Source: Murinocardiopsis flavida | Lineage (GTDB): Bacteria; Actinomycetota; Actinomycetes; Streptosporangiales; Streptosporangiaceae | Assembly (NCBI RefSeq): GCF_003014485.1 | Contig: NZ_PYGA01000017.1 | Span: 1-64,000, forward strand | Direction of reading: 5' to 3' | Length of the DNA stretch: 64,000 nucleotides | In this document: positions 50,017 through 61,557 of the stretch, piece after piece | Layout of the letters: each line of letters opens with the position of its first letter | Position numbering within the stretch: position 1 is the first letter of the stretch | Made by a program: the position numbers and the translations under genes | Notes under the pieces: generated by a model | Seen by the model: the letters and a program-made list of their open reading frames with translations, nothing else | What the model was told of the DNA's origin: nothing | The model's database searches: none

Positions 50017-50337
50017 ATGCAGATCAAACGCGCCATTTTCTCCGCCGCCGCGGCCCTCGGGGTCGCGGCGGTGTCGTTCGGAGTGGCGGGTGCCGCCGCC
50101 CCCGCTGCCGAGGCGGGGCTGATGTGCCAGGCGAAGATCTCGAAGGCCGGGGTCTCCCACGCCGCGTACTCCGTGTGCAAGGGCTACTCCGGCAACGACT
50201 ACCGCCAGGTTCGCGCGGTCGCCTACTGCAAGGGCGACCAGACCGTCTACGGCCCGTGGAAGTGGAACGGCGCCAAGAGCACCGCACCGTGCCCGCGCAA
50301 TATCGCGATCAACCGCGCCGGGGTGCAGCTGAAGTAG
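50017..50337 (+). CDS. Small secreted four-cysteine protein, first of a tandem pair
   Basis: A 106-residue exported protein of unknown function. A Sec signal peptide (MQIKRAIFSAAAALGVAAVS...) ends at APAAEA, with likely cleavage after Ala33. The mature part, about 73 residues, has four cysteines (37, 54, 71, 92), presumably two disulfides, and conserved blocks GLMCQAK, CKGYSGNDYRQVRAVA and YGPW. The next gene encodes a close paralogue. No family is recognised. Context gives no function; size and disulfides would suit an extracellular structural, inhibitor or toxin-like role, all speculative. Confidence 0.8.
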   Translation: MQIKRAIFSAAAALGVAAVSFGVAGAAAPAAEAGLMCQAKISKAGVSHAAYSVCKGYSGNDYRQVRAVAYCKGDQTVYGPWKWNGAKSTAPCPRNIAINRAGVQLK

Positions 50338-50395
50338 CCCGGACCGCGACCGGGATTCCGGGGGCCGCATGGCTCCCGCCGCCGCGAATGCGGTA

Positions 50396-50416
50396 CCGCG
50401 CGGATTTCCCGCGCGG
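50396..50416 (+). promoter_or_regulatory. Intergenic hairpin with ATTTC loop between the secreted-protein genes
   Basis: CCGCGCGG (50396-50403) and CCGCGCGG (50409-50416) pair around the loop ATTTC. The loop is identical to that of the hairpin before the first gene while the stem sequence differs. It may end the first transcript, protect the second, or both. Confidence 0.4.
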
Positions 50417-50509
50417 TTCGGCGCGGACCGGCATCGCCCCCGAATTCCCCATTCCCCTGACCATGGAATCCGGAATCGTCCGGACGAAGCGAGAAAGCCA
50501 CCCGAAACG

Positions 50510-50824
50510 ATGTCGATGAAACGCACTCTGGCATCCGTGACCGCCGCACTGGGCGTCGCGGTGACGTCCTTCGCCCTCATGGGCACCGCCGCCCCGGCGG
50601 CTGAAGCCGGGCTGATGTGCCAGGCCAAGGTCGCGAAGAGCAAGGCGTACGTCTACTCCGCGTGCAAGGGCTACTCAGGCAACAACTACCGCCAGGTCCG
50701 CGCGGTCGCCTCGTGCGACAGCTACAAGACCTACGGCCCCTGGGTCGACGGCGGCGCCGCGACGAGCCGCGCGTACTGCGCCGAGTCGTTCGCGGTCAAG
50801 TTCGCCTCCGTGCAACTGCGCTAG
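50510..50824 (+). CDS. Small secreted four-cysteine protein, second of a tandem pair
   Basis: A 104-residue paralogue of the preceding protein, in the same orientation 172 bases downstream. The signal peptide (MSMKRTLASVTAALGVAVTS...) again ends at APAAEA. The mature protein has cysteines 37, 52, 69 and 90 and the same blocks GLMCQAK, CKGYSGNNYRQVRAVAS and YGPW. The middle and C-terminal loops differ, so the disulfide core is conserved while surface segments have diverged. ATG 50516 is a possible second start. Function unknown. Confidence 0.8.
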   Translation: MSMKRTLASVTAALGVAVTSFALMGTAAPAAEAGLMCQAKVAKSKAYVYSACKGYSGNNYRQVRAVASCDSYKTYGPWVDGGAATSRAYCAESFAVKFASVQLR

Positions 50825-51613: not shown

Positions 51614-51695
51614 GGCAGGTTGCCCGAGTGGCCAAAGGGAGCGGACTGTAAATCCGCCGGCTCAGCCTTCGTAGGTTCGAACCCTACACCTGCCA
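51614..51695 (+). tRNA. tRNA-Tyr (GUA)
   Basis: An 82-base class II tRNA. Acceptor arms GGCAGGT (51614-51620) and ACCTGCC (51688-51694), discriminator A51695, and TTCGAAC in the T loop. The anticodon loop CTGTAAA gives GTA at 51648-51650. The long variable arm is as expected for bacterial tRNA-Tyr. CCA is not encoded. It marks the left edge of the Wadjet/ATPase island. Confidence 0.95.
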
Positions 51696-51700
51696 CACCA

Positions 51701-51748: not shown

Positions 51749-52019
51749 CGTTTCCGGTGGGTCCCGGTCGGTCGCGGCCGCTGTGGAACAGCCGCGGAAC
51801 GTGCCCGGACGGGGGAGTGATCGGCGTGGCTCGGGGTGGGCGGGCGGTGACCGAGAGCCGCCGCCCCGCCGCCGTCCGGTGGGCGCGCCGACGGTGGCGG
51901 GAAGTTCTCGGGTAAAACTGTGAATCTCCTGCTCACAGGCGACATTTCAGCGCCGTCGATGGGGCGTGTACGCCGATTTTGGGCACGGCGGTCGTGTGGG
52001 GTCTTTAGTCTGCTGAGTT
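51749..52019. other. Region between tRNA-Tyr terminator and the jet genes
   Basis: No gene is supported. It does not encode the missing N-terminal half of JetA in any frame I read. TAGTCT at 52006-52011 lies eight bases before the GTG of the short jetA, a spacing typical of actinomycete leaderless transcripts. No duplicate of the tRNA 3' end that would mark an attachment site is seen. Confidence 0.5.
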
Positions 52020-52922
52020 GTGGGTGATTCAGCGAAGCGAGGCAGGGGCGCGCGGGCGGCGGTACCGCGCGCCGAGTCGTCGACGCTGCCGACCGGAGCG
52101 CCCGACGCCCCCCACTCCCACCGCCCGGTGGCGCGGCACGGCCGTGCGGCGCTGCTGCGCCTCGCGTCCTGGTTCGACGCCGCCGACAGCGCGTCCGCGC
52201 ACGAGATCTACACCGCCGCGTTCGGCGCCCACGGCGGGCACCACCTCGGCGGCGGGGTCGTGGACGACTCCGTCCACGCCACCACGAGCTGGTGGGACGC
52301 CCCCACCGCGGTGCTGCCCAGCGGCCCGCGCAGCGCCGTTCCGGCCGCGGCGGTCGCCGACTACGGCGACCAGCAGGCCCGGTTGCGCGACGCCGCCGAG
52401 GCCGCGGCGCACTGGCGGCGCTCGGCGGCCCGCGAGGTCCGCCGGCTGCTGTCCGAGCCCACCGGCGACGACTCCCGGGTCGACCTGTCGGCCGCGGCGA
52501 TGGAAGTACTCATGGAGCTGCTCACCGCGGCCCTCGGTTCCGGCGACACCGGGGCGGGGCCGGTCTCGGCCGGCGACCTCGAACTCGACGTCCGGCTGCA
52601 CGTCAGCCGCGACCCCGACGCCAGGCTCACGCTCAGCCGCAGCGCGGGCGCACTGGTGCTGGCCGAGCTGCGACTGCGGGCCACCGGGTACGCCGAGACC
52701 GACGCCGGCGGCGCGCGGGGTCCCGCAACGGACGCCGACGACCCCGGTCCCGGCCACGGCGCCGCGCGCACCCCCGACGACTCCGACGACCCCGACGAGT
52801 TCGCCAACGCCGCGACCCCGCCCGCCGGGTTCGCGGCCCCCGGTGGCACGCCCGGCACGGGCGGCCGCCACAGCCAGTCCGGCCGTTCGCACGCGGCGAC
52901 CCGCCTGGTGCGCAACGGATGA
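52020..52922 (+). CDS. jetA: JetA-like protein (DUF2397/TIGR02677), C-terminal half only
   Basis: A 300-residue protein matching only the C-terminal half of the Wadjet kleisin JetA. Recognisable blocks are RLASWFDAADSASAHEIYTAAFG (in part: LASWFDAADSASAHEIY), HATTSWWDAP and ARLRDAAEAAAHWRRSAARE. Full JetA proteins are about 480-500 residues; the N-terminal winged-helix and SMC-neck part is missing and replaced by 45 low-complexity residues. The C-terminal 70 residues are Asp/Pro/Gly-rich. TAGTCT just upstream would give a leaderless message from GTG 52020, so the short form may be expressed. It is either a truncated remnant or a minimal variant; jetB follows after 46 bases. Confidence 0.7.
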   Translation: MGDSAKRGRGARAAVPRAESSTLPTGAPDAPHSHRPVARHGRAALLRLASWFDAADSASAHEIYTAAFGAHGGHHLGGGVVDDSVHATTSWWDAPTAVLPSGPRSAVPAAAVADYGDQQARLRDAAEAAAHWRRSAAREVRRLLSEPTGDDSRVDLSAAAMEVLMELLTAALGSGDTGAGPVSAGDLELDVRLHVSRDPDARLTLSRSAGALVLAELRLRATGYAETDAGGARGPATDADDPGPGHGAARTPDDSDDPDEFANAATPPAGFAAPGGTPGTGGRHSQSGRSHAATRLVRNG

Positions 52923-52968
52923 CCAAGAGCCCACGACCGGCGGCGAGGGCGGCGAGGAGGTGACCCCC

Positions 52969-54237
52969 ATGACATCCGATCCCGACATCGCGCTCATCTT
53001 CGAGCGGCAGGGGGCCGCCCGCACACTGCTCGCGGCCCCGATCATCGGCGCGCGCACCCACCCTGAGGAGTTCGCGCTGGTCGCCGCGCACTCCGACTGG
53101 CTGATCCAGCGGTTCGGCCGGGTGCTCGGCTACCGGCTCGACGTCGGCACCGACCACGCCCGGCTCGCGAAGGCCGGGCTGGTGCGCGGCGTCACCCGGC
53201 CGCCGGCCCGCGCCAGCGGGGCCGTGTTCTCCCCGCGGTCGTACGCGTTCCTGGCGCTGACCCTCGCCGTCCTTGTCGAGGCGCCGCCCAGCGTCGCGCT
53301 ACCGGACCTCGCCGCGGAGGTCCGCGCGGCCGCGGCGGAGGCCGGGCTCGGACTCGACCCTGAGGGCAGCACCGCCGAACGCCACGCGTTCGCCGCCGCG
53401 CTGCGCCGCCTCACCGAATGGGGCGCCGTGCGCCCGGTGGCCGACCCGGCGAGCGGGCCCGCCGCGAACGGCGGCGCCGAAGTGCCGCACACCCGCCTGG
53501 AGGTCGACAGCGCCATTGCGCGCTCGGTCGTGGCGAACCCCCCGCACTCCGAGTCCGACGCAGGCGCGTTCCTCGGCGCGGCGCACGACGTCGAGCCCGC
53601 CGACCCCGGGGCCGCCGAACTCGCCCTGCGGCGCCTCCTCGCCGAGACCCCGGTGGTGTACCGCGCCGACCTGTCCCCGGCGATGCGCGACCACCTCGCC
53701 CGGCACCAGTGGCGCGCCGCCGCGGAGCTCGGCGGCCTGCTGGGCTGCGAGGCCGAGATCCGCGCCGAAGGCGTCGCGCTGATCATGCCCGACGACCCCG
53801 ACCGCTCCGGCCGCGCCGCAGTGCCGCGCACCCCCGTGTTCCCCGGGGCCGACCCCGTCAGCCAGGCCGCGCTGGCGCTCGTCGGGCGGCTTGTCGAGCG
53901 GCTCGGCCCGCGTGCACCCCGGGCCGACTCCGTCCCGGTGCCGGGCGAGCTGCTGGAACGGGAACTCACCGCGGTCACCGACCCCGCCGGTGCGGCGTCC
54001 CGCAGGTGGGCCCGCGCCGCCGTCGGCCACGACCCCGACCCCGAGCACCTGTCCGGCCGGGTCCTCACGCTGCTCGCCGAGGCCCGGCTGCTCGACCGCG
54101 TCCCCGCCGCCGACGGCGCCCCCGGGGAGTGGACGCTCGCCGCCGCGGCGGCCCGCTACGGCCCGCGCGCCGCCGACCCCGGGGAGGAGGCGGGGGCCAA
54201 TGACGAACCCGCGCGCCCGAACGAGCACCCGCGATGA
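52969..54237 (+). CDS. jetB: JetB-like protein (DUF2398/TIGR02678)
   Basis: A 422-residue, apparently full-length member of the TIGR02678 family, the MukE-like winged-helix subunit of Wadjet that bridges kleisin and SMC. Typical segments are FERQGAARTLLAAPIIGART, HSDWLIQRFGRVLGYRLDV, SPRSYAFLALTLAVL and VVYRADLSPAMRDHLARHQW. ATG 52969 has GAGGAGG eight bases upstream; GTG 52960 is an alternative. The tail is acidic. It lies between the short jetA and jetC on one strand, so one operon. Confidence 0.82.
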   Translation: MTSDPDIALIFERQGAARTLLAAPIIGARTHPEEFALVAAHSDWLIQRFGRVLGYRLDVGTDHARLAKAGLVRGVTRPPARASGAVFSPRSYAFLALTLAVLVEAPPSVALPDLAAEVRAAAAEAGLGLDPEGSTAERHAFAAALRRLTEWGAVRPVADPASGPAANGGAEVPHTRLEVDSAIARSVVANPPHSESDAGAFLGAAHDVEPADPGAAELALRRLLAETPVVYRADLSPAMRDHLARHQWRAAAELGGLLGCEAEIRAEGVALIMPDDPDRSGRAAVPRTPVFPGADPVSQAALALVGRLVERLGPRAPRADSVPVPGELLERELTAVTDPAGAASRRWARAAVGHDPDPEHLSGRVLTLLAEARLLDRVPAADGAPGEWTLAAAAARYGPRAADPGEEAGANDEPARPNEHPR

Positions 54238-54442
54238 CCGGTGTTTTCGCAGGTACCGGGCCATAGCGCCGACAAATCCGCAGGTCGGCCCCAATGCGCC
54301 GGGCCACTCGGGACATCCGGGAGAATAAGGAGGGTGCCTCCGACCGCGGCCCCCCGGATCGCGCGGAGCCCCGCGGGCCACCGGCGGCCCGGGAATCCCA
54401 CCGAACACACCCCATAGGGACACACCAACGAGGCGACGAGGC

Positions 54443-57400
54443 GTGGCACAGAGTTCCGAAACGGGCACGGCCCAAGACGACACCGCCCGGTCCACGACCG
54501 GCCCCGTCGCCGCGTCCACCGCAGGCGCGCCGGCGTCGGAGCAGGCAGCGCCGTCACCGGTCGGCACCGCGACGGACACCCCCGCCGCCGACCCCGCACG
54601 GCAGGCCGGGCGGCGCCCCGGGCGCAGCCGCCTCAACCGGGCCGGTATCCACAACGTCTGGCAGTACGACGACCACGTCTTCCGCTTCGCCGACGGCCGC
54701 CTGCTGCTCCGCGGCCGCAACGGCGCCGGGAAGTCCAAGGCGCTGGAGATGCTGCTGCCGTTCCTGCTCGACGGCGACGCCCGCCGGCTCGACACCACCG
54801 GCACGAGCCGCACCAGCCTGCGCTGGCTGGTGCTCGACGGCCGCACCCCCGCGACCGTCGGCTCCGCCGCGACGCTGGGCTACCTGTGGGTGGAGTTCGC
54901 CGGGCGCGACTCCGACGGCGAACCGCGCTGGACCACCCTCGGGGCCGCCGTCACCGCTGTCCCCGGCGCCACCGACGCCCGAACGGTCTTCTTCGTCACC
55001 GACCGCCGCCCCGGGGAGGACCTCCGGCTGGTCGACGACGGCCGCCCGATGCCCATCGAGCGGCTCCGCGCCGAGGTCGGCCCCGACAACTGCTACGACA
55101 CCCCTGCGCCCTACCGGGCCCGGGTCATGGCCGAGCTGTTCGGCCTGGACGACCCGCTGCGGTACCGCAACCTGATGCACCTGCTGTACCGGCTGCGCCG
55201 CCCCACGATCGGCGAGCGCCTCGAAGCGGGCGAACTCGTCTCGGTCCTCGCCGAGGCGCTGCCGCCCATGGACGAGACGGTTCTCGACCAGGTCGCCCGC
55301 AACATCTCCGACCTCGACTCCGCCCGCGACCGGTTGCGCAGCCTCCGCTCGGCGAAGGAGCAGGTGGGCGACTTCCTCGCCGACTACCGGCATTACCTGC
55401 ACGGCACCCTGCGCGACCAGGTCGCAGCGGTGCGCGCGCAGCTCGACGCCTATTGGCGGCGCGACTCCGAGGTCGCCCGGCTGAGCGAGGAGCTCGACCA
55501 CCTCGTCGCCGAGGAGGGCGAGGTCCAGGAGGAGCGCGACCGGCTGCGCCGCAGCCGCGACACCGCGGCCGCCGACGCCGCCACCCTGGCGTCCAGCAGC
55601 CCCGGCGGTGCGCCGCCCGGCGACGGCGAGCGCGAGGCGCGCTACGCCGCCGTCAACGCCTACATCCGCGCCGCGGAATCCGCGTGGGCCGGCGCCGGGT
55701 ACGCCCTGACCGCCGAGCAGGACGCCAGGACCCGGCTCGACACCGACGTCGCGGCCCTGGAGTCCCGCCTCGCCGCGCTGGGGCGCGAGCACGCCGTCCT
55801 CGCCGAGACGGCGCTCGACTGCGGCATCGGCGCCGACCTGCTCGGCCAGGTCCCCCAGGCCGTGCCCACCACACTCGCGCCGCGCGAGAGCACCACCCGG
55901 GTCAACCTCGAAGGCCTTGAGGAGGCGGTGGAGCGCGACCCCGTGCACGGCATCGACTCCGCCGCGCTTAGCACCGCCCTCGGCGCACTGCACGACCGCC
56001 TCACCGGCGCCGACGACGTCGCCGCCGAACGCGGGCGCGCGGCGTCGGAGCTGCACGAGCGCGCCGTCGCGCGCGACCGCGCGGCGCGGCGCGAGACCGC
56101 GCTCGCCGACGAGGCCGAATGGTGCGACGCCGCACTCGAACGCGCCCGCGAGCGCGAGGCCGTCGCCATCGACACCGTGCGCCGGGCCGGCACCGAGTAC
56201 GCGGCCGCCGTGCGCGCCTGGGCGGGCGAGCTGGGCGCCGCCGCGGAGGACGCCCCGCGCCTCGACGCGCTGGAGGCCTCCGTCGAGCTTCCCCTCGACG
56301 ACGCCCTGCGCGTCCTCGACCCCGATGTGCCGCTGTCCGTCGCCGCGCACGCGCACGCCGCCGTCGACCCCCTCCTCACCGAGCTGCGCTCGCGGCGCGA
56401 CACCGCCGTCAGCGAGGAGCGCGAGCTCGCCGCCGAACTCGATGAGCTGTCCGAGCGCAAGCGCAGCGGCGTCGACCCGGTTCCCGCTGTCCAGCCGTGG
56501 GCCGCCGCCGACCGCGACCACACCAAGGGCGCCCCGTTCTACCTCGCCCTGGAGTTCGCCCCCGGGCTCAGCGACGCCCGCCGCGCCGGGCTCGAGGCGG
56601 CGCTGGAGGCCAGCGGGCTGCTGTCCGGCTGGATCGGCGCCGACGGCGGGGTCCGCGACCCGATGACCCGCGACCTCGTCCTCGCCCCAGGCGAGCCGCT
56701 CACCGGCCGCACCCTCGCCGACCTGCTCGACCCCGTCGAACCGCCGGGGTCCGGGGTCACCCAGCGCACCGTTGCCGCGCTGCTGTCGTCCATCGCGCTG
56801 GACCCCGATGACGGCGCGCCGCCCGCCTCGGGTACCTGCGCCGTCGCCACCGACGGACGCTGGCGGCTCGGTGTGGCGTCGGGCGCGCACAGCAAGACCG
56901 TCGCCGAGTTCATCGGCAGGGAGGCGCGCACGCGCGGCAACGCGCGCCAGCTCGCCAACGTCGACCGGCGCATCGCCATAGCCGAGGCGCTGCTCGCCGA
57001 GGCCGAGGAGCGGCGCGCCGACATCGAACGCCGCCACGCCGCCCTCGTCCGGCTCGCGCGCACCGTGCCGTCGAGCGCCGACCTGCTCTCGGGCTGGGCC
57101 GCGCTCGACACCGCGCGCACCTGGCTGTCGCAGGCCGAACGCGACCGCGCCACCGCGGCGCGCGCCGCCGAGACCGCCCGCACAGCGGCCCTGGACCTGC
57201 GCCGCGCCGTCGCGGACCAGGCCGACCCCGACACCCTGCCCACCGGGGCCGACGAACTCGCCGGTGTCCTCGCCGGGATCGGGCGGCTGCGCGCCGAGAT
57301 CGGCGCGACGCACCGCGACCTCGAATCGCTCGCCCTGCGCCTGGCTGAGTACCGCACCCGCATCGAGGAGTGGGAGCGGATCCGCGACGACCGGATCCTC

Positions 57401-58864
57401 GCGGAGGACGCCCGCTCCGCCGCCATCAGCGACATGATCACCGTCCGGCGCGAGACCGAGCTCACCGACCGCGCGCGCGGAGCGGCGCCGGAGCAGATCG
57501 AGGCAGCCGTCGGCGAGGTCCGCGGCCGCCGCGACACGGCAGCCGACGCCCTGCCCGCGGTCGAGCGCGCCGCCCAGCAGGCCCGCGACGACAGGGTCGC
57601 GGCCGAGACCCGGCTCGACACCGGCGTGTCGGAGCGCGCGGCGCAGGCGCAGCGGGCGCTCGACTCCGGCGCGCCGCTGCGCGCCATGCTGGCGGGCCCC
57701 GACGGGGCGCCCGACCCCGCCCTGCTCACGGCGGCCGGCCTGCCCGAGAAGACCGCGTCGCTCGCCGCCGCCGCACCCGAGACGGCGGCGGCCGAGCCGG
57801 ACACCGACGAACCGGCCGACCTCGCCGAGCAGGTGCGGGCGCTCGACTCCCTCGTCGCCGCCATCGAGGACGCGCTGCCCGACGAGGCGACCGCCGACAT
57901 CGACAACAGCGGCATCCTGCGCCGCCGCGAGGAATTGCACGGGCTGCTCGCCGAGGGCGGCGCCGCGGCCGCGCGCACCGAGCTGACCGAGCCGGCCGGG
58001 GTCAAGCGGCTCCTCGTCCACGACGACGACGGCACGCACGACATCACGGCCTTCGGCGACCGGCTCACCGACGCCATCGCGCAAGCGGAGGAGACGGCCG
58101 CGCGGCGCGAGGAGGAGGCGTACGAGCGCCACCTGCTGGGCGAGCTCGCCGCCCACCTGTCCCGCCAGATCGACCAGGCCCGCGCCCTCATCGCCACCAT
58201 GAACGAGGTCCTCGGCGAGGTCACCACCTCCCAGGGGCTCGGCGTGCGGCTCGACTGGCGGCTCGCGCCGGACGCCGACGAGGACATCCGCGCGGTGGTC
58301 CCGCTGCTGGACCGCCCCGCAGAGCAGCGGACCCGGGTCGAGACCACCCGGCTGCGCGACGCACTGCGCCGCTGCATCGAGGCCATCCGCCGACTCGACC
58401 CCACCGCCACGGGCGGCGCCCAGCTCCGCTCGGCGCTCGACTACCGGTCCTGGTTCGCCTTCACGGTCTATGTGACCGACACCGCCCGCCCCGAGCGGGA
58501 GCGCAGGCTCAGCCACCGCACCGCGCTCAGCCAGGGCGAGCAGCGGGTCATCGCCTACCTGGTGCTGTTCGCCGCGGCGGCGGCGCAGTTCGATTCCCTC
58601 GCGGAGCACGCGCCCGACGCGCCGCGCCTCATCCTCCTCGACGATGCTTTCGCCAAGGTCGACGAGCCCACCCACGGCCGCCTCCTCGGCCTGCTCGTCG
58701 AGCTCGACCTCGACTTCGTGCTCACCTCCGAACGCCTGTGGGGCTGCTTCGCCAGCGTCCCGAGCCTGCACATCTACGAATGCCTGCGCGACCCCGCGTC
58801 GCCCGGGATCGCCACCCTGCACTTCACCTGGGACGGCAACCGCCGCAAACTCCTCGGCGTCTGA
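54443..58864 (+). CDS. jetC: JetC-like SMC ATPase (TIGR02680)
   Basis: A 1473-residue SMC/MukB-like ATPase, the motor of Wadjet, which extrudes DNA loops and in complete systems presents plasmids to JetD for cleavage. Walker A is GRNGAGKS (91-98) after a 60-residue disordered start; two long coiled coils rich in Glu/Arg/Ala flank a central hinge; the signature LSQGEQRV is near 1362 and Walker B LILLDDAFAKVDE near 1396, followed by TSERLWGC. The residue after the Walker B Asp is Asp, where many ABC ATPases have Glu. No JetD gene follows. Length and motifs look complete. Confidence 0.85.
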   Translation: MAQSSETGTAQDDTARSTTGPVAASTAGAPASEQAAPSPVGTATDTPAADPARQAGRRPGRSRLNRAGIHNVWQYDDHVFRFADGRLLLRGRNGAGKSKALEMLLPFLLDGDARRLDTTGTSRTSLRWLVLDGRTPATVGSAATLGYLWVEFAGRDSDGEPRWTTLGAAVTAVPGATDARTVFFVTDRRPGEDLRLVDDGRPMPIERLRAEVGPDNCYDTPAPYRARVMAELFGLDDPLRYRNLMHLLYRLRRPTIGERLEAGELVSVLAEALPPMDETVLDQVARNISDLDSARDRLRSLRSAKEQVGDFLADYRHYLHGTLRDQVAAVRAQLDAYWRRDSEVARLSEELDHLVAEEGEVQEERDRLRRSRDTAAADAATLASSSPGGAPPGDGEREARYAAVNAYIRAAESAWAGAGYALTAEQDARTRLDTDVAALESRLAALGREHAVLAETALDCGIGADLLGQVPQAVPTTLAPRESTTRVNLEGLEEAVERDPVHGIDSAALSTALGALHDRLTGADDVAAERGRAASELHERAVARDRAARRETALADEAEWCDAALERAREREAVAIDTVRRAGTEYAAAVRAWAGELGAAAEDAPRLDALEASVELPLDDALRVLDPDVPLSVAAHAHAAVDPLLTELRSRRDTAVSEERELAAELDELSERKRSGVDPVPAVQPWAAADRDHTKGAPFYLALEFAPGLSDARRAGLEAALEASGLLSGWIGADGGVRDPMTRDLVLAPGEPLTGRTLADLLDPVEPPGSGVTQRTVAALLSSIALDPDDGAPPASGTCAVATDGRWRLGVASGAHSKTVAEFIGREARTRGNARQLANVDRRIAIAEALLAEAEERRADIERRHAALVRLARTVPSSADLLSGWAALDTARTWLSQAERDRATAARAAETARTAALDLRRAVADQADPDTLPTGADELAGVLAGIGRLRAEIGATHRDLESLALRLAEYRTRIEEWERIRDDRILAEDARSAAISDMITVRRETELTDRARGAAPEQIEAAVGEVRGRRDTAADALPAVERAAQQARDDRVAAETRLDTGVSERAAQAQRALDSGAPLRAMLAGPDGAPDPALLTAAGLPEKTASLAAAAPETAAAEPDTDEPADLAEQVRALDSLVAAIEDALPDEATADIDNSGILRRREELHGLLAEGGAAAARTELTEPAGVKRLLVHDDDGTHDITAFGDRLTDAIAQAEETAARREEEAYERHLLGELAAHLSRQIDQARALIATMNEVLGEVTTSQGLGVRLDWRLAPDADEDIRAVVPLLDRPAEQRTRVETTRLRDALRRCIEAIRRLDPTATGGAQLRSALDYRSWFAFTVYVTDTARPERERRLSHRTALSQGEQRVIAYLVLFAAAAAQFDSLAEHAPDAPRLILLDDAFAKVDEPTHGRLLGLLVELDLDFVLTSERLWGCFASVPSLHIYECLRDPASPGIATLHFTWDGNRRKLLGV

Positions 58865-59170
58865 CCCGATCGATCCGCACCGGAGCCACAACGACCGGCC
58901 AAGCAGGCCGGTCCCCGAGGCGTAATCAGTCCGGTCGCCCAAGGGGGTTTTGTACCTCATTCCCAGGGGGTGTCTCCGGGAGTCGCGGTGGAGGGGCGCG
59001 CCGGTGTCTGGACTGACGAGCGAGGAGCGACCGAGGTACGAGGGAGCGACGAGCGAGGAGGGAAGGCACCGGCCTGAAGCGCCCCGTAGCCGCGGCGACC
59101 AAGAAGCAGGTCTACTTGTTTGGCATGACCTGTCCTAGTCTGCAATGGCGAGATCGACTCAGAAGCAGGT
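58865..59170. repeat. Intergenic region with GA-rich direct repeats
   Basis: Where jetD would be expected there is only about 300 bases of non-coding sequence. GACGAGCGAGGAG occurs at 59015-59027 and again at 59048-59060, 33 bases apart, within a longer purine-rich stretch of GAGCGA/GAGGAG units. AGAAGCAGGT is also repeated at 59102 and 59161. TAGTCT at 59136-59141 is a possible -10 for the ATPase gene. No JetD (DUF3322/DUF2399) sequence is readable in any frame. Confidence 0.55.
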
Positions 59171-61261
59171 GTGGTGACGGTGACGGCCCCAGCAACGTTC
59201 GCCGGACAGGTTCCGAATCGGCGCGGTGATCCGGCGCGTCCTGAGCGTTCTATTGAGGAGCGGCTGGCCGAGGCGCCTCTTGATGGTGAGGCCCGCCGCT
59301 GGGCGGTCGCGGCTCTGCTCGGTGATGACGCTGTCGCGTCGTGCGTCGACGGCGATGACGCCCCGCTGCCGGAGCCGCGGCCGGGCCCCGCTCCGGAGCC
59401 TGTCGCGGTTCGGCGCAGTTTCCTCAGCAGGGTCGAGGTGCAGGGGTTCCGCGGTATCGGTCGTACGGCGGCGTTGGAGTTCCCGCCGGGGCCGGGGCTC
59501 ACGGTCATCGTGGGCCGCAACGGTTCGGGGAAGTCCAGTTTCGCCGAGGCGGCCGAGGCGGCGTTGACGGGCCGCAATCTGCGGTGGGATGCCATGCCCA
59601 CCGCGTGGCGCGATGGCTGGCGGAATCTGCATTTCGACGACCGCACGGAGATCGCGGTCGATCTGCACTTGTCGGGCGACTCCGCGCCGACGCGCATCAC
59701 GCGCACGTGGTCGGGTGAGAGTGTGCGGTCGGCGCGCGGCCGCGTGGTGGGCCCGGACGGTGTCTCCGGGCCGCTGCGCAGTCTGGGGTGGGACACCGAA
59801 CTGGTGCGCTACCGCCCGTTCCTGTCCTATGACGAGCTCGGGCGGGCGGTGCATGGCCGCTCCGCGGAGCTGTACGACACTCTCACGGGTTTGCTGGGCC
59901 TCACCGGGTTGGCCGATGCGGAGCGGCGGCTCGCCAAGGCGTGTGAGCGTCTGGCGAAGGAGCAGGACGCGCCCAGCCGCGCGCTGCCTCTTCTGGTCGA
60001 GCGGTTGCGGGGCTACGACGATCCCCGTGCGCGTTCCGCTGTGGAGCTGCTCACCGCGCAGTCGATCGATCTCGGCCGCGTCGCGGCGATCGCGGCCGAC
60101 GACGGGCCGGCCGATCCCGCGGCGCAGGTGGTCCTGCGGCGGTTGCGGCGGCTCGCCGTGCCGGAGCGGGCGCTGCTGAACGACGTCGTCAACGAGTTGC
60201 GGGGCGCCGCCATGGAGCTCGCCATGGCGGCGGGCACCAAGGGCGACCGCGCCCATGGCCTTGTCGAGCTGTTGGGAGCGGCGCTGGAGCACCATCGCCG
60301 CCACCCGGCGGAGCAGGACTGCCCCACGTGCGGCACCTCCGACGCGATCGGGCCGCAGTGGGTGCGCCGCGCCGAGGCGGAGATCGCGTCCCTGCGGACT
60401 CTCGCTGCGAGTGCGTCGTCGGCGTACGAACGGGCCGAGAAGGCCCGCGACCAGGCCCGGTTCCTAGTGGCGCCGCCGCCGTCCTGGCTGCCGCCCGACA
60501 GCGACCTCGGCGTGCTGTGGGCCGAGTGGGCCGCCGGCGGTGAACTCGCGGACCTCCGCGAGCTGGCCGACCACATCGAGACGGTCGGCCGCAGGCTGCG
60601 TTCGGCCGCCATCAGCGCGCGCAAGGCGGCGACCGAGCGTCTGGCCGACCCCACGGAGGGCTGGTCGTCGGCGGCCGAGGATCTCGCGGCGTGGGTCGAG
60701 GACGCCCACGCGGCCATGCGGGCCCGGCAGACCCTCGCCCCCGCGGGGCAGGCGCTCGAATGGTTCACCGAGGCGGCCCGGCAGGTCCGGGCCGACCGCC
60801 TGCGCCCGCTGTCGGCGCAGGCCGAGCAGGTCTGGCACCGGCTCCGCCAGGAGCGCCACATCGATCTCGACGCTCTGCGCCTGGTGGGCAGGGGCGCGCA
60901 GCGGCGGGTGGCGGTCGATGTGAGCGTCGACGGCTCCGATCCCGGCGGCAACGCGCCCGGGCTGCTGAGCCAGGGCGAGTTCCAGGCGCTCGCGCTGTCG
61001 ATCTGCCTGCCGCGCACGCTCATCGCCGAGAACCCGTTCGGGTTCCTGGTGCTCGACGACCCGGTGCAGGCCATGGACACCGAGACGGTCGAGGGGCTCG
61101 CGGCCGTGCTGGCCGAGGTGGGGCGGCACCGCCAGCTCATCGTGTTCACCCACGACACCCGGTTGTCCGACTCCATCCGGCGCCTCGGCCTGCCGGCCGG
61201 GATCCGCACGATCCACCGCGATGCGATGTCGAACGTGTGGGTGACCGAGGACACCGCATGA
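59171..61261 (+). CDS. Rad50/SbcC-like ATPase with zinc-hook motif
   Basis: A 696-residue ABC-type ATPase of the Rad50/RecF/SMC class. After a 75-residue variable start come FLSRVEVQGFRGIGRTAALE, Walker A GRNGSGKSS (115-123), a first coiled region, a central CPTCG (Cys384, Cys387) that matches a Rad50 zinc hook, a second coil, the signature LLSQGEFQALALS (near 598), Walker B FLVLDDPVQAMD (near 624) and the H-loop FTHD. No nuclease partner is adjacent. Codons end in T more often than in neighbours, hinting at acquisition. Similar ATPases occur in Lamassu and related defences, but a lone gene is not diagnostic. GTG 59171 is used; 59174 and 59180 are alternatives. Confidence 0.78.
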   Translation: MVTVTAPATFAGQVPNRRGDPARPERSIEERLAEAPLDGEARRWAVAALLGDDAVASCVDGDDAPLPEPRPGPAPEPVAVRRSFLSRVEVQGFRGIGRTAALEFPPGPGLTVIVGRNGSGKSSFAEAAEAALTGRNLRWDAMPTAWRDGWRNLHFDDRTEIAVDLHLSGDSAPTRITRTWSGESVRSARGRVVGPDGVSGPLRSLGWDTELVRYRPFLSYDELGRAVHGRSAELYDTLTGLLGLTGLADAERRLAKACERLAKEQDAPSRALPLLVERLRGYDDPRARSAVELLTAQSIDLGRVAAIAADDGPADPAAQVVLRRLRRLAVPERALLNDVVNELRGAAMELAMAAGTKGDRAHGLVELLGAALEHHRRHPAEQDCPTCGTSDAIGPQWVRRAEAEIASLRTLAASASSAYERAEKARDQARFLVAPPPSWLPPDSDLGVLWAEWAAGGELADLRELADHIETVGRRLRSAAISARKAATERLADPTEGWSSAAEDLAAWVEDAHAAMRARQTLAPAGQALEWFTEAARQVRADRLRPLSAQAEQVWHRLRQERHIDLDALRLVGRGAQRRVAVDVSVDGSDPGGNAPGLLSQGEFQALALSICLPRTLIAENPFGFLVLDDPVQAMDTETVEGLAAVLAEVGRHRQLIVFTHDTRLSDSIRRLGLPAGIRTIHRDAMSNVWVTEDTA

Positions 61262-61370: not shown

Positions 61371-61443
61371 GCCCCTTTAGCTCAGTCGGCAGAGCGTCTC
61401 CATGGTAAGGAGAAGGTCTACGGTTCGATTCCGTAAAGGGGCT
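61371..61443 (+). tRNA. tRNA-Thr (GGU)
   Basis: A 73-base tRNA. Acceptor GCCCCTT/AAGGGGC, D-stem GCTC/GAGC, anticodon stem TCTCC/GGAGA with loop ATGGTAA giving anticodon GGT, T-stem TACGG/CCGTA. CCA is encoded at 61444-61446. It closes the island on the right and begins the conserved tRNA-Thr/tRNA-Met/rpmG block. Confidence 0.95.
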
Positions 61444-61557
61444 CCACCACTTGATGAGGTCCGGTCCACTCAGGTGGGTGACCGGCGGAAATCTCATTCG
61501 CCGGTCGGATCGGGTTCGGGTAGCATGCAAAGGCCGCCCGGGGGACCCGGTCGACGA

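What the first reader, a model, noticed from the sequence alone, without database searches (positions are those of the whole stretch)
52020..58864. Wadjet-type SMC locus with a half-length JetA and no JetD
The order jetA-jetB-jetC is that of Wadjet, whose known form needs JetD, a topoisomerase VI-like nuclease, to cut plasmids. Here JetB and JetC look complete, JetA retains only its C-terminal family region, and the 300 bases after jetC hold no JetD. Either the system is decaying next to a tRNA gene, or it is a nuclease-free minimal SMC complex with a non-cleaving role similar to MukBEF/MksBEF. The intact 1473-residue JetC, with no stop or frameshift, argues that selection still acts on it.
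Basis: partly seen in the sequence, partly recalled or inferred. Interest (0 to 1): 0.75.

Follow-up and report, generated by a model that had tools for sequence, protein, structure and literature searches.

The report
Nuclease-free SMC complex with half kleisin
A bacterial DNA-handling motor that descends from a plasmid-cutting defence machine has lost its cutting enzyme and half of one ring subunit, yet related bacteria keep it intact at the same chromosomal place, which suggests that it was turned to a new, non-cutting use.

Summary
In detail: the window holds a half-length jetA with jetB and jetC of type II Wadjet, and no jetD. It is not decay. The same short jetA, with a conserved start and upstream block, is in 33 of 150 sampled genomes of the window's family. 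ATPase gene, HadA and MurB follow in 30 of 30 stretches that reach that far; YajQ precedes in 21 of 33. By KorA, 24 of the 25 nearest of 100 genomes carry the locus. JetC keeps its ATPase motifs. The JetC tree nests the short clade inside JetABCD systems; its sister, Allonocardiopsis, has full-length JetA but no JetD there. This genome has a complete JetABCD and an orphan jetD elsewhere, but 7 of 14 short-JetA genomes tested have no type II JetD. A Rad50-like ATPase gene (59171-61261) occurs in all 24 carriers. Best reading: a Wadjet core domesticated as a vertically inherited, nuclease-free SMC complex whose kleisin keeps only its C-terminal half, so it probably neither dimerises nor closes the neck gate. 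Function is inferred, not shown.

The parts
52006..52011 (+). TAGTCT, -10-like element 8 nt before the jetA GTG (leaderless start inferred)
   Evidence: sequence; TANNNT at this spacing in 29 of 33 short-jetA loci, TAGTCT in 26 of 33
52014..52016 (+). in-frame TGA just before the jetA start, excludes a longer JetA here
   Evidence: in-frame TGA at the same place in 23 of 33 loci
52020..52922 (+). short jetA (300 aa): C-terminal part of a type II Wadjet kleisin
   Evidence: PF09660 300-482 of 483, TIGR02677 302-485 of 494 (below cut-off), PADLOC JetA2
52969..54237 (+). jetB (KITE subunit), whole family profile covered
   Evidence: PF09661 1-362 of 363, TIGR02678 1-373 of 376 below its cut-off, PADLOC JetB2
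54443..58864 (+). jetC (SMC ATPase, 1473 aa), Walker A, signature and Walker B present
   Evidence: TIGR02680 867 bits; motifs; PDB 9qe0 JetC E 1.6e-64
59136..59141 (+). TAGTCT, -10-like element before the downstream ATPase gene, like the one before jetA (seen by eye)
59171..61261 (+). RecF/Rad50-like ATPase gene with a CPTC (zinc-hook-like) motif; companion of the locus
   Evidence: PF02463, PF13476; Rad50/SMC chains in the PDB; co-occurrence
51614..51696 (+). tRNA-Tyr, upstream neighbour
   Evidence: same in 6 of 9 named relatives
61371..61446 (+). tRNA-Thr, downstream neighbour
   Evidence: same in 8 of 9 named relatives, the ninth contig ends before it

Best explanation
A type II Wadjet core that lost its nuclease and was domesticated in an ancestor of the Nocardiopsidaceae. 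Shown: JetD absent from the locus, the N-terminal part of JetA absent, JetB and the JetC ATPase intact, the arrangement kept across the sampled clade, and no type II JetD at all in 7 of 14 genomes tested. Without the dimerising winged helix there would be no dimer of motors, and without the neck-binding helical domain JetA could not close the neck gate. The complex would then be a single motor that clamps, bridges or tethers chromosomal DNA transiently and does not cut it: an accessory to Smc-ScpAB (ScpA is present in 15 of 15 genomes checked), probably together with the neighbouring Rad50-like ATPase.
For: 33 of 150 family genomes carry the short JetA, with conserved N-termini (VGDS and variants) and mostly the same upstream block. 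ATPase gene, HadA and MurB follow in 30 of 30 stretches that reach them. JetD in 0 of 33 stretches. No type II JetD in the whole genome in 7 of 14 short-JetA genomes, two of them single-contig. ATPase motifs kept: Walker A 31 of 32, signature and Walker B 32 of 32. Within-genus dN/dS medians: JetC 0.32, JetB 0.36, JetA 0.43 against MurB 0.27 and HadA 0.27. 24 of the 25 genomes nearest by KorA carry the locus. JetC tree: short clade monophyletic (0.967), sister to a full-JetA locus without JetD (1.0), nested in JetABCD lineages. ScpA in 15 of 15.
Against: No experiment exists. That the lost part equals MukF's dimerisation and neck-binding domains rests on sizes, low-confidence AlphaFold helices (pLDDT 52) and the MukF literature; hhalign of JetA against MukF failed, and 9qe0 was matched, not inspected. 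In E. coli, impairing the kleisin-neck contact releases MukBEF from chromosomes (PMC5812716, abstract), so a neck-free complex might be a poor DNA holder. The JetC neck coil (bounds set by eye) is not selectively relaxed: its conservation rank falls by 0.13, the hinge by 0.12, and the largest falls lie elsewhere, so something may still bind the neck. Seven of the 14 genomes tested, this one included, have a type II JetD match from another locus that might act in trans. JetA is the least constrained of the genes compared. Chromosome care rather than cleavage-free defence is inferred from distribution only.
Confidence: 0.55

Rival explanations
1. Still a defence system: JetABC senses small circular DNA or phage DNA without cutting it, and the adjacent Rad50-like ATPase (or a silencing or sequestering effect) replaced JetD as effector.
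For: Origin inside JetABCD lineages. The ATPase gene is present in 24 of 24 carriers and adjacent in 30 of 30 stretches that reach it. Its best PADLOC matches are mad3, LmuB and PDC-S06. Similar -10-like elements stand before jetA and, by eye, before the ATPase gene.
Against: Presence in 24 of the 25 nearest genomes beside housekeeping genes is unlike the patchy spread usual for defence genes (recalled). Co-occurrence with the ATPase gene is within one clade, so possibly one event. No nuclease domain in its Pfam matches; the small gene that follows its paralogues is not found here.
Confidence: 0.25
2. Missing parts are supplied in trans: JetD and the JetA N-terminal part come from another Wadjet in the genome.
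For: This genome has jetABCD at C14 and an orphan jetD at C29; 7 of 14 short-JetA genomes tested have a type II JetD match.
Against: The other 7 of 14 have none, and in 5 of those 7 the short JetA is the only JetA found by the A1 profile. The C14 system is distant: its JetA is 28% identical to the full-length JetA of L022.
Confidence: 0.1
3. The locus is decaying beside a tRNA gene.
For: Short jetA and no jetD at the locus.
Against: The same short form, start and gene order in 33 of 150 genomes, open frames, ATPase motifs kept, dN/dS near housekeeping neighbours.
Confidence: 0.03
4. A split kleisin: another protein, not recognisable by sequence, closes the neck and takes the role of the lost JetA part.
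For: JetC neck not selectively relaxed. A lipoprotein-like gene lies upstream of jetA in 21 of 33 short-JetA stretches.
Against: tblastn with two JetA N-terminal parts finds nothing in the 33 short-JetA stretches, and PF09660 finds no separate N-terminal piece in this genome. The upstream gene is not found in the window and precedes full-length jetA too (L022).
Confidence: 0.07

Closest known systems
Type II Wadjet (JetABCD; PDB 9qe0/9qe1, Neobacillus vireti Wadjet-II JetABC)
   Same: Gene order jetA-jetB-jetC, families DUF2397/DUF2398/TIGR02680; JetC-tree position inside JetABCD lineages.
   Different: No JetD in the locus; JetA lacks about the first 300 positions of its family; inheritance with the clade at one place.
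MksBEF of Pseudomonas aeruginosa and MukBEF of Escherichia coli
   Same: An SMC-kleisin-KITE core of Wadjet type without the JetD nuclease; [quoted passage not shown]
   Different: MukF keeps winged-helix and middle domains; MksF of P. aeruginosa was not examined here. This locus comes from type II Wadjet and has only the C-terminal kleisin part.
Laboratory truncation FC2 of MukF (PMC5812716)
   Same: Kleisin reduced to middle region plus C-terminal domain; binds the MukB head and stimulates its ATPase to 60% of the maximum.
   Different: An engineered fragment; here the short form is the natural, conserved protein, and its activity is unmeasured.

Membership tests
Wadjet type II | JetC of the TIGR02680 / JetC2 family with ATPase motifs | tested here: met
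Wadjet type II | JetB (DUF2398) adjacent | tested here: met
   PF09661 and PADLOC JetB2; below the TIGR02678 cut-off
Wadjet type II | full-length JetA (DUF2397, about 490-500 aa) | tested here: not met
   only positions about 300-485 present; TIGR02677 below cut-off; same short form in the 33 loci picked for it
Wadjet type II | JetD nuclease (TIGR02679) in the operon | tested here: not met
   0 of 33 stretches, three of which end soon after jetC or before it; absent from 7 of 14 whole genomes
Wadjet type II | plasmid restriction | not testable with these tools
   needs plasmid uptake tests
MukBEF/MksBEF | JetD-free SMC-kleisin-KITE operon | tested here: met
MukBEF/MksBEF | kleisin with winged-helix and neck-binding middle domains | tested here: not met
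   JetA N-terminal part absent; MukF has both domains; equivalence of the parts inferred
MukBEF/MksBEF | role in chromosome organisation or segregation | not testable with these tools
   needs deletion and chromosome-conformation data
Lamassu / MADS (for the 59171 ATPase) | SMC-like ATPase plus its partner components | tested here: inconclusive
   partial profile matches to mad3 and LmuB; partner components were not searched for; only about 110 bases separate the gene from tRNA-Thr

The most novel reading that the evidence does not exclude
A natural SMC motor that works without a kleisin that can close the neck gate and without dimerising: a plasmid-cutting Wadjet disarmed in two steps (JetD lost, then half of the kleisin) and turned into a core chromosome complex with a Rad50-like ATPase partner across the Nocardiopsidaceae.
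Probability: 0.4. Interest if true: 0.85.

Novelty: new variant of a known kind. Interest (0 to 1): 0.72.

Why it matters
MksBEF, and perhaps MukBEF, are thought to descend from nuclease-armed Wadjet systems (PMC10586767), but intermediates are hard to find. Here one clade shows possible steps side by side: complete JetABCD, full JetABC without JetD at the locus, then JetABC with half a kleisin. It also offers a natural test of which kleisin contacts an SMC motor really needs, because the part usually credited with dimerisation and neck-gate closure is gone while the ATPase stays under selection.

Tried and rejected
Decay and strain-specific truncation: rejected by the comparative data. A full-length JetA read from an upstream start or another frame: rejected (in-frame TGA; tblastn with two JetA N-terminal parts negative in the 33 short-JetA stretches). 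jetABC as an island at tRNA-Tyr: rejected, since the block also sits in place where the gap to tRNA-Tyr is empty or filled with other genes; in Actinorugispora (L018), however, an integrase-like gene (by eye) lies in that gap and no tRNA-Tyr or YajQ is found in the 6.7 kb upstream, so elements do enter there. Release of the JetC neck from constraint: inconclusive. Domain equivalence by hhalign of JetA with E. coli MukF: no useful alignment. AlphaFold of short JetA (pLDDT 47) and of the full-length L022 JetA (pLDDT 52): poor; only the second was searched, and it finds 9qe0_E and 9qe1_E (E 1.5e-9 and 9.5e-8, TM-scores of only 0.15-0.23), with MukF 3euh_B at a non-significant E of 0.17. A scan of viral contigs with full-length JetA found no relative. 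JetB has no match in the PDB by sequence. A regular expression for a core-helix motif was badly designed, matched nothing in either group and was not used. The LRERG.R motif, absent from 33 of 33 short JetA and present in 7 of 8 fetched full-length ones, is also absent from the full-length C14 and C12 JetA, C14 having a JetD, so it says little. In one search the query called JetD29 was translated from the wrong strand and is not used; JetD hits rest on the C14 JetD query. dN/dS is by simple counting, on pairs with dS 0.05-1.5, without a neutral control; third-position GC bias probably inflates the ratios, so only comparison with the neighbours is meaningful.

The 33 loci are the window plus L077-L108, picked because they are short. 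The eight full-length loci (L069-L076) are eight of the next matches, not a random sample. The 14 short-JetA genomes are 14 of the 33. L077, L090 and L108 end before the ATPase gene; L108 holds jetA but no jetB or jetC. In the class search four matches of short-JetA strength lie in frames of 446-538 aa that I did not fetch.

Literature: searches in the open-licence PubMed Central library listed no title or abstract about a half-length JetA or this locus; of the listed papers I looked into five only. Subscription papers on Wadjet structures (recalled: Deep 2022, Liu 2023, Roisne-Hamelin 2024) were not looked up.
Full report
jetA at 52020-52922 encodes 300 aa that match only about the last 185 positions of the JetA families: 300-482 of 483 in PF09660, 302-485 of 494 in TIGR02677 (below its cut-off), and a JetA2 model of PADLOC. 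The frame cannot be extended, because TGA stands at 52014-52016. jetB (52969-54237) and jetC (54443-58864) cover their family profiles nearly from end to end (PF09661, TIGR02680), though jetB scores below the TIGR02678 cut-off (84.1 against 124.65 bits). No JetD lies before the next gene, a RecF/Rad50-like ATPase gene at 59171-61261.

The window's own genome (7.38 Mb, 75 contigs) has three JetC: this one, one at C14 inside a complete jetABCD, and one at C12 with a full-length jetA but no jetD found on that contig. It has two clear type II JetD matches: one in the C14 operon and one alone at C29. So a full jetA and a jetD exist in the genome, but at other loci.

A scan of named genomes with JetC returned nine loci, eight with short JetA and one with full-length JetA. 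The organisms include Marinitenerispora, Nocardiopsis, Actinorugispora, Thermobifida, Allosalinactinospora, Marinactinospora and Allonocardiopsis; six of these seven genera are listed under Nocardiopsidaceae in the NCBI taxonomy, Allonocardiopsis is not. Downstream, the ATPase gene, tRNA-Thr, tRNA-Met, HadA and MurB are present in 8 of 9; the ninth contig ends first. Upstream, YajQ and tRNA-Tyr are present in 6 of 9; two contigs begin close to jetA, and L018 has other genes there, one integrase-like. Allonocardiopsis opalescens (L022) differs: full-length JetA (567 aa) and the ATPase gene inverted, but again no JetD at the locus. Its genome (G067) has a partial JetD match elsewhere, with a stop inside.

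In 150 genomes drawn from the family, a profile of short JetA (A1) finds 33 with a strong match (E 6.5e-49 or better) in a frame of 220-389 aa. Allonocardiopsis matches at 3.0e-56 in a frame of 575 aa, and the other weaker matches lie nearly always in frames of over 500 aa. I fetched stretches for all 33 (the window and L077-L108) and for eight of the full-length loci. All 33 short frames offer a start with a conserved N-terminus (VGDS and variants such as VGVS, VGLN, VNDS). A -10-like TANNNT stands at the same spacing before it in 29 of 33, and an in-frame TGA at the same place in 23 of 33. This spacing suggests a leaderless messenger (inference). The ATPase gene, HadA and MurB follow in 30 of 30 stretches that reach them; YajQ was found upstream in 21 of 33. 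JetD was found in 0 of the 33. Of the eight full-length loci, seven have JetD; the one without is Allonocardiopsis. In 394 genomes spread over the class, matches of short-JetA strength (E 4e-75 or better) fall only in this family; the best outside it is 1.6e-40 in a 586-aa frame.

Selection. No stop interrupts the conserved part of JetA, JetB or JetC in these loci; tblastn runs past a stop only at the variable ends of L081 JetA, L107 JetB and L084 JetC. Walker A is present in 31 of 32 JetC (L077, whose search hit starts after it, is the likely gap), signature and Walker B in 32 of 32. Within-genus dN/dS medians are JetA 0.43 (34 pairs), JetB 0.36 (31), JetC 0.32 (31), the ATPase 0.23 (27), against MurB 0.27 (27), HadA 0.27 (26) and YajQ 0.21 (16). 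JetA is the least constrained; the method has no neutral control.

Clade-wide presence. In a fully listed sample of 100 family genomes, 24 have the locus (23 with short JetA, and Allonocardiopsis). Ranked by KorA similarity these are 24 of the nearest 25. The exception, G033 (84%), carries a complete JetABCD on another contig; the next genome, G069 (82%), is not among the matches. Genomes with KorA split in pieces were judged by eye: G056 (86-88%), a carrier; G059 (83% and 75%) and G085 (78%), non-carriers. Three of the 100 had no KorA match. This is inheritance with the clade, unlike the patchiness usual for defence systems (recalled).

Independence from JetD. Of 14 whole genomes with short JetA that I tested, 7 have no TIGR02679 match at E 0.001 (G009, G025, G030, G070, G087, G109, G139); G030 and G070 are single contigs. 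In five of the seven (all but G087 and G109) the short JetA is the only JetA found by the A1 profile. JetD of other Wadjet types was not searched. ScpA of the ordinary Smc-ScpAB complex is present in 15 of 15.

History. In a JetC tree of 42 sequences (1421 columns, rooted on the C12 paralogue) the short clade is monophyletic (0.967), sister to Allonocardiopsis (1.0), and nested among loci with JetD. The simplest order is JetABCD, then loss of JetD, then loss of the JetA N-terminal part; separate losses of JetD are not excluded.

What the lost part does. In MukBEF the kleisin's N-terminal winged helix and middle domain hold two complexes together, the middle domain binds the SMC neck, the C-terminal winged helix binds the cap, and the kleisin recruits the KITE protein (PMC7617805, passages). 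Pfam divides E. coli MukF into 3-117, 121-281 and 283-440, so its C-terminal domain (158 residues) is close in size to what JetA keeps. In type I Wadjet, dimerisation of the kleisin N-terminus joins the two motors (PMC10586767, section 7 and passages). A MukF fragment of middle region plus C-terminal domain (FC2) gives 60% of maximal ATPase and has the complete MukE site, while impairing the MukF-MukB interaction in vivo releases MukBEF from chromosomes (PMC5812716, abstract, outline and passages). In C. glutamicum the nuclease MksG binds the kleisin MksF (PMC10123090, passages). Hence the inference that short JetABC is a single, hydrolysing motor without neck-gate closure and without a nuclease. 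Structural proof is lacking. By sequence the full-length JetA of L022 matches 9qe0_E (E 1.4e-17), and the short JetA profile matches only its residues 310-382 weakly (E 0.0023). AlphaFold models were poor. The JetC neck coil is not selectively relaxed, which counts against a simple version of this model.

The neighbouring ATPase. An orthologue (58% identity or more) is present in exactly the 24 carriers out of 100 genomes, in G007, G053 and G056 on another contig than jetA; 11 other genomes hold only paralogues of 48% identity or less. Because the 24 form one clade this may be a single event. It is very conserved (mean column identity 80% in 8 sequences), carries CPTC (CPAC in one of the eight) in a zinc-hook-like place (recalled motif), and resembles Rad50 and SMC heads. 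In 5 of 6 paralogue stretches inspected a gene of 114-132 aa follows the paralogue; no credible relative of it was found in the Jet stretches. TAGTCT-like elements precede jetA and, by eye, the ATPase gene in many loci. A shared role with JetABC is likely but unproven.

Known status. [quoted passage not shown] New here, as far as the searches named in Tried and rejected reach, are such a loss in type II Wadjet, the conserved half kleisin, its kept place across a clade, and the Rad50-like companion. PMC12287153 (passages) gave background on Wadjet function only.

Noticed in passing
G000:C12:134382-141417 (L012): A second jetABC in the same genome, with full-length jetA but no jetD found on its contig; a MarR-type regulator and a PEP-utilising-enzyme gene follow.
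   Followed up: partly
G000:C29:29510-30643, minus strand (L013): An orphan type II jetD; no jetABC in the 19 kb around it.
   Followed up: partly
L149, L150, L151, L153, L154: Paralogues of the 59171 ATPase gene in other genera are followed by a gene of 114-132 aa, with AxHxHxYEL in four of five: possibly an undescribed two-gene system.
   Followed up: partly
L017:6022-6537 and counterparts: A lipoprotein-like gene without Pfam match lies upstream of jetA in 21 of 33 short-JetA stretches, and before full-length jetA in L022; not found in the window.
   Followed up: no
50017-50337 and 50369-50824: Two neighbouring small secreted-type proteins that resemble each other (shared AAPAAEAGLMCQAK and CKGYSGN).
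   Followed up: no
G033:C371 (L070): The one genome close to the clade by KorA that lacks the locus carries a complete jetABCD that branches just outside Allonocardiopsis and the short clade in the JetC tree; it may preserve the ancestral state.
   Followed up: partly
L018:2158-6321: In Actinorugispora the gap upstream of jetA holds other genes, one of them integrase-like by eye.
   Followed up: no
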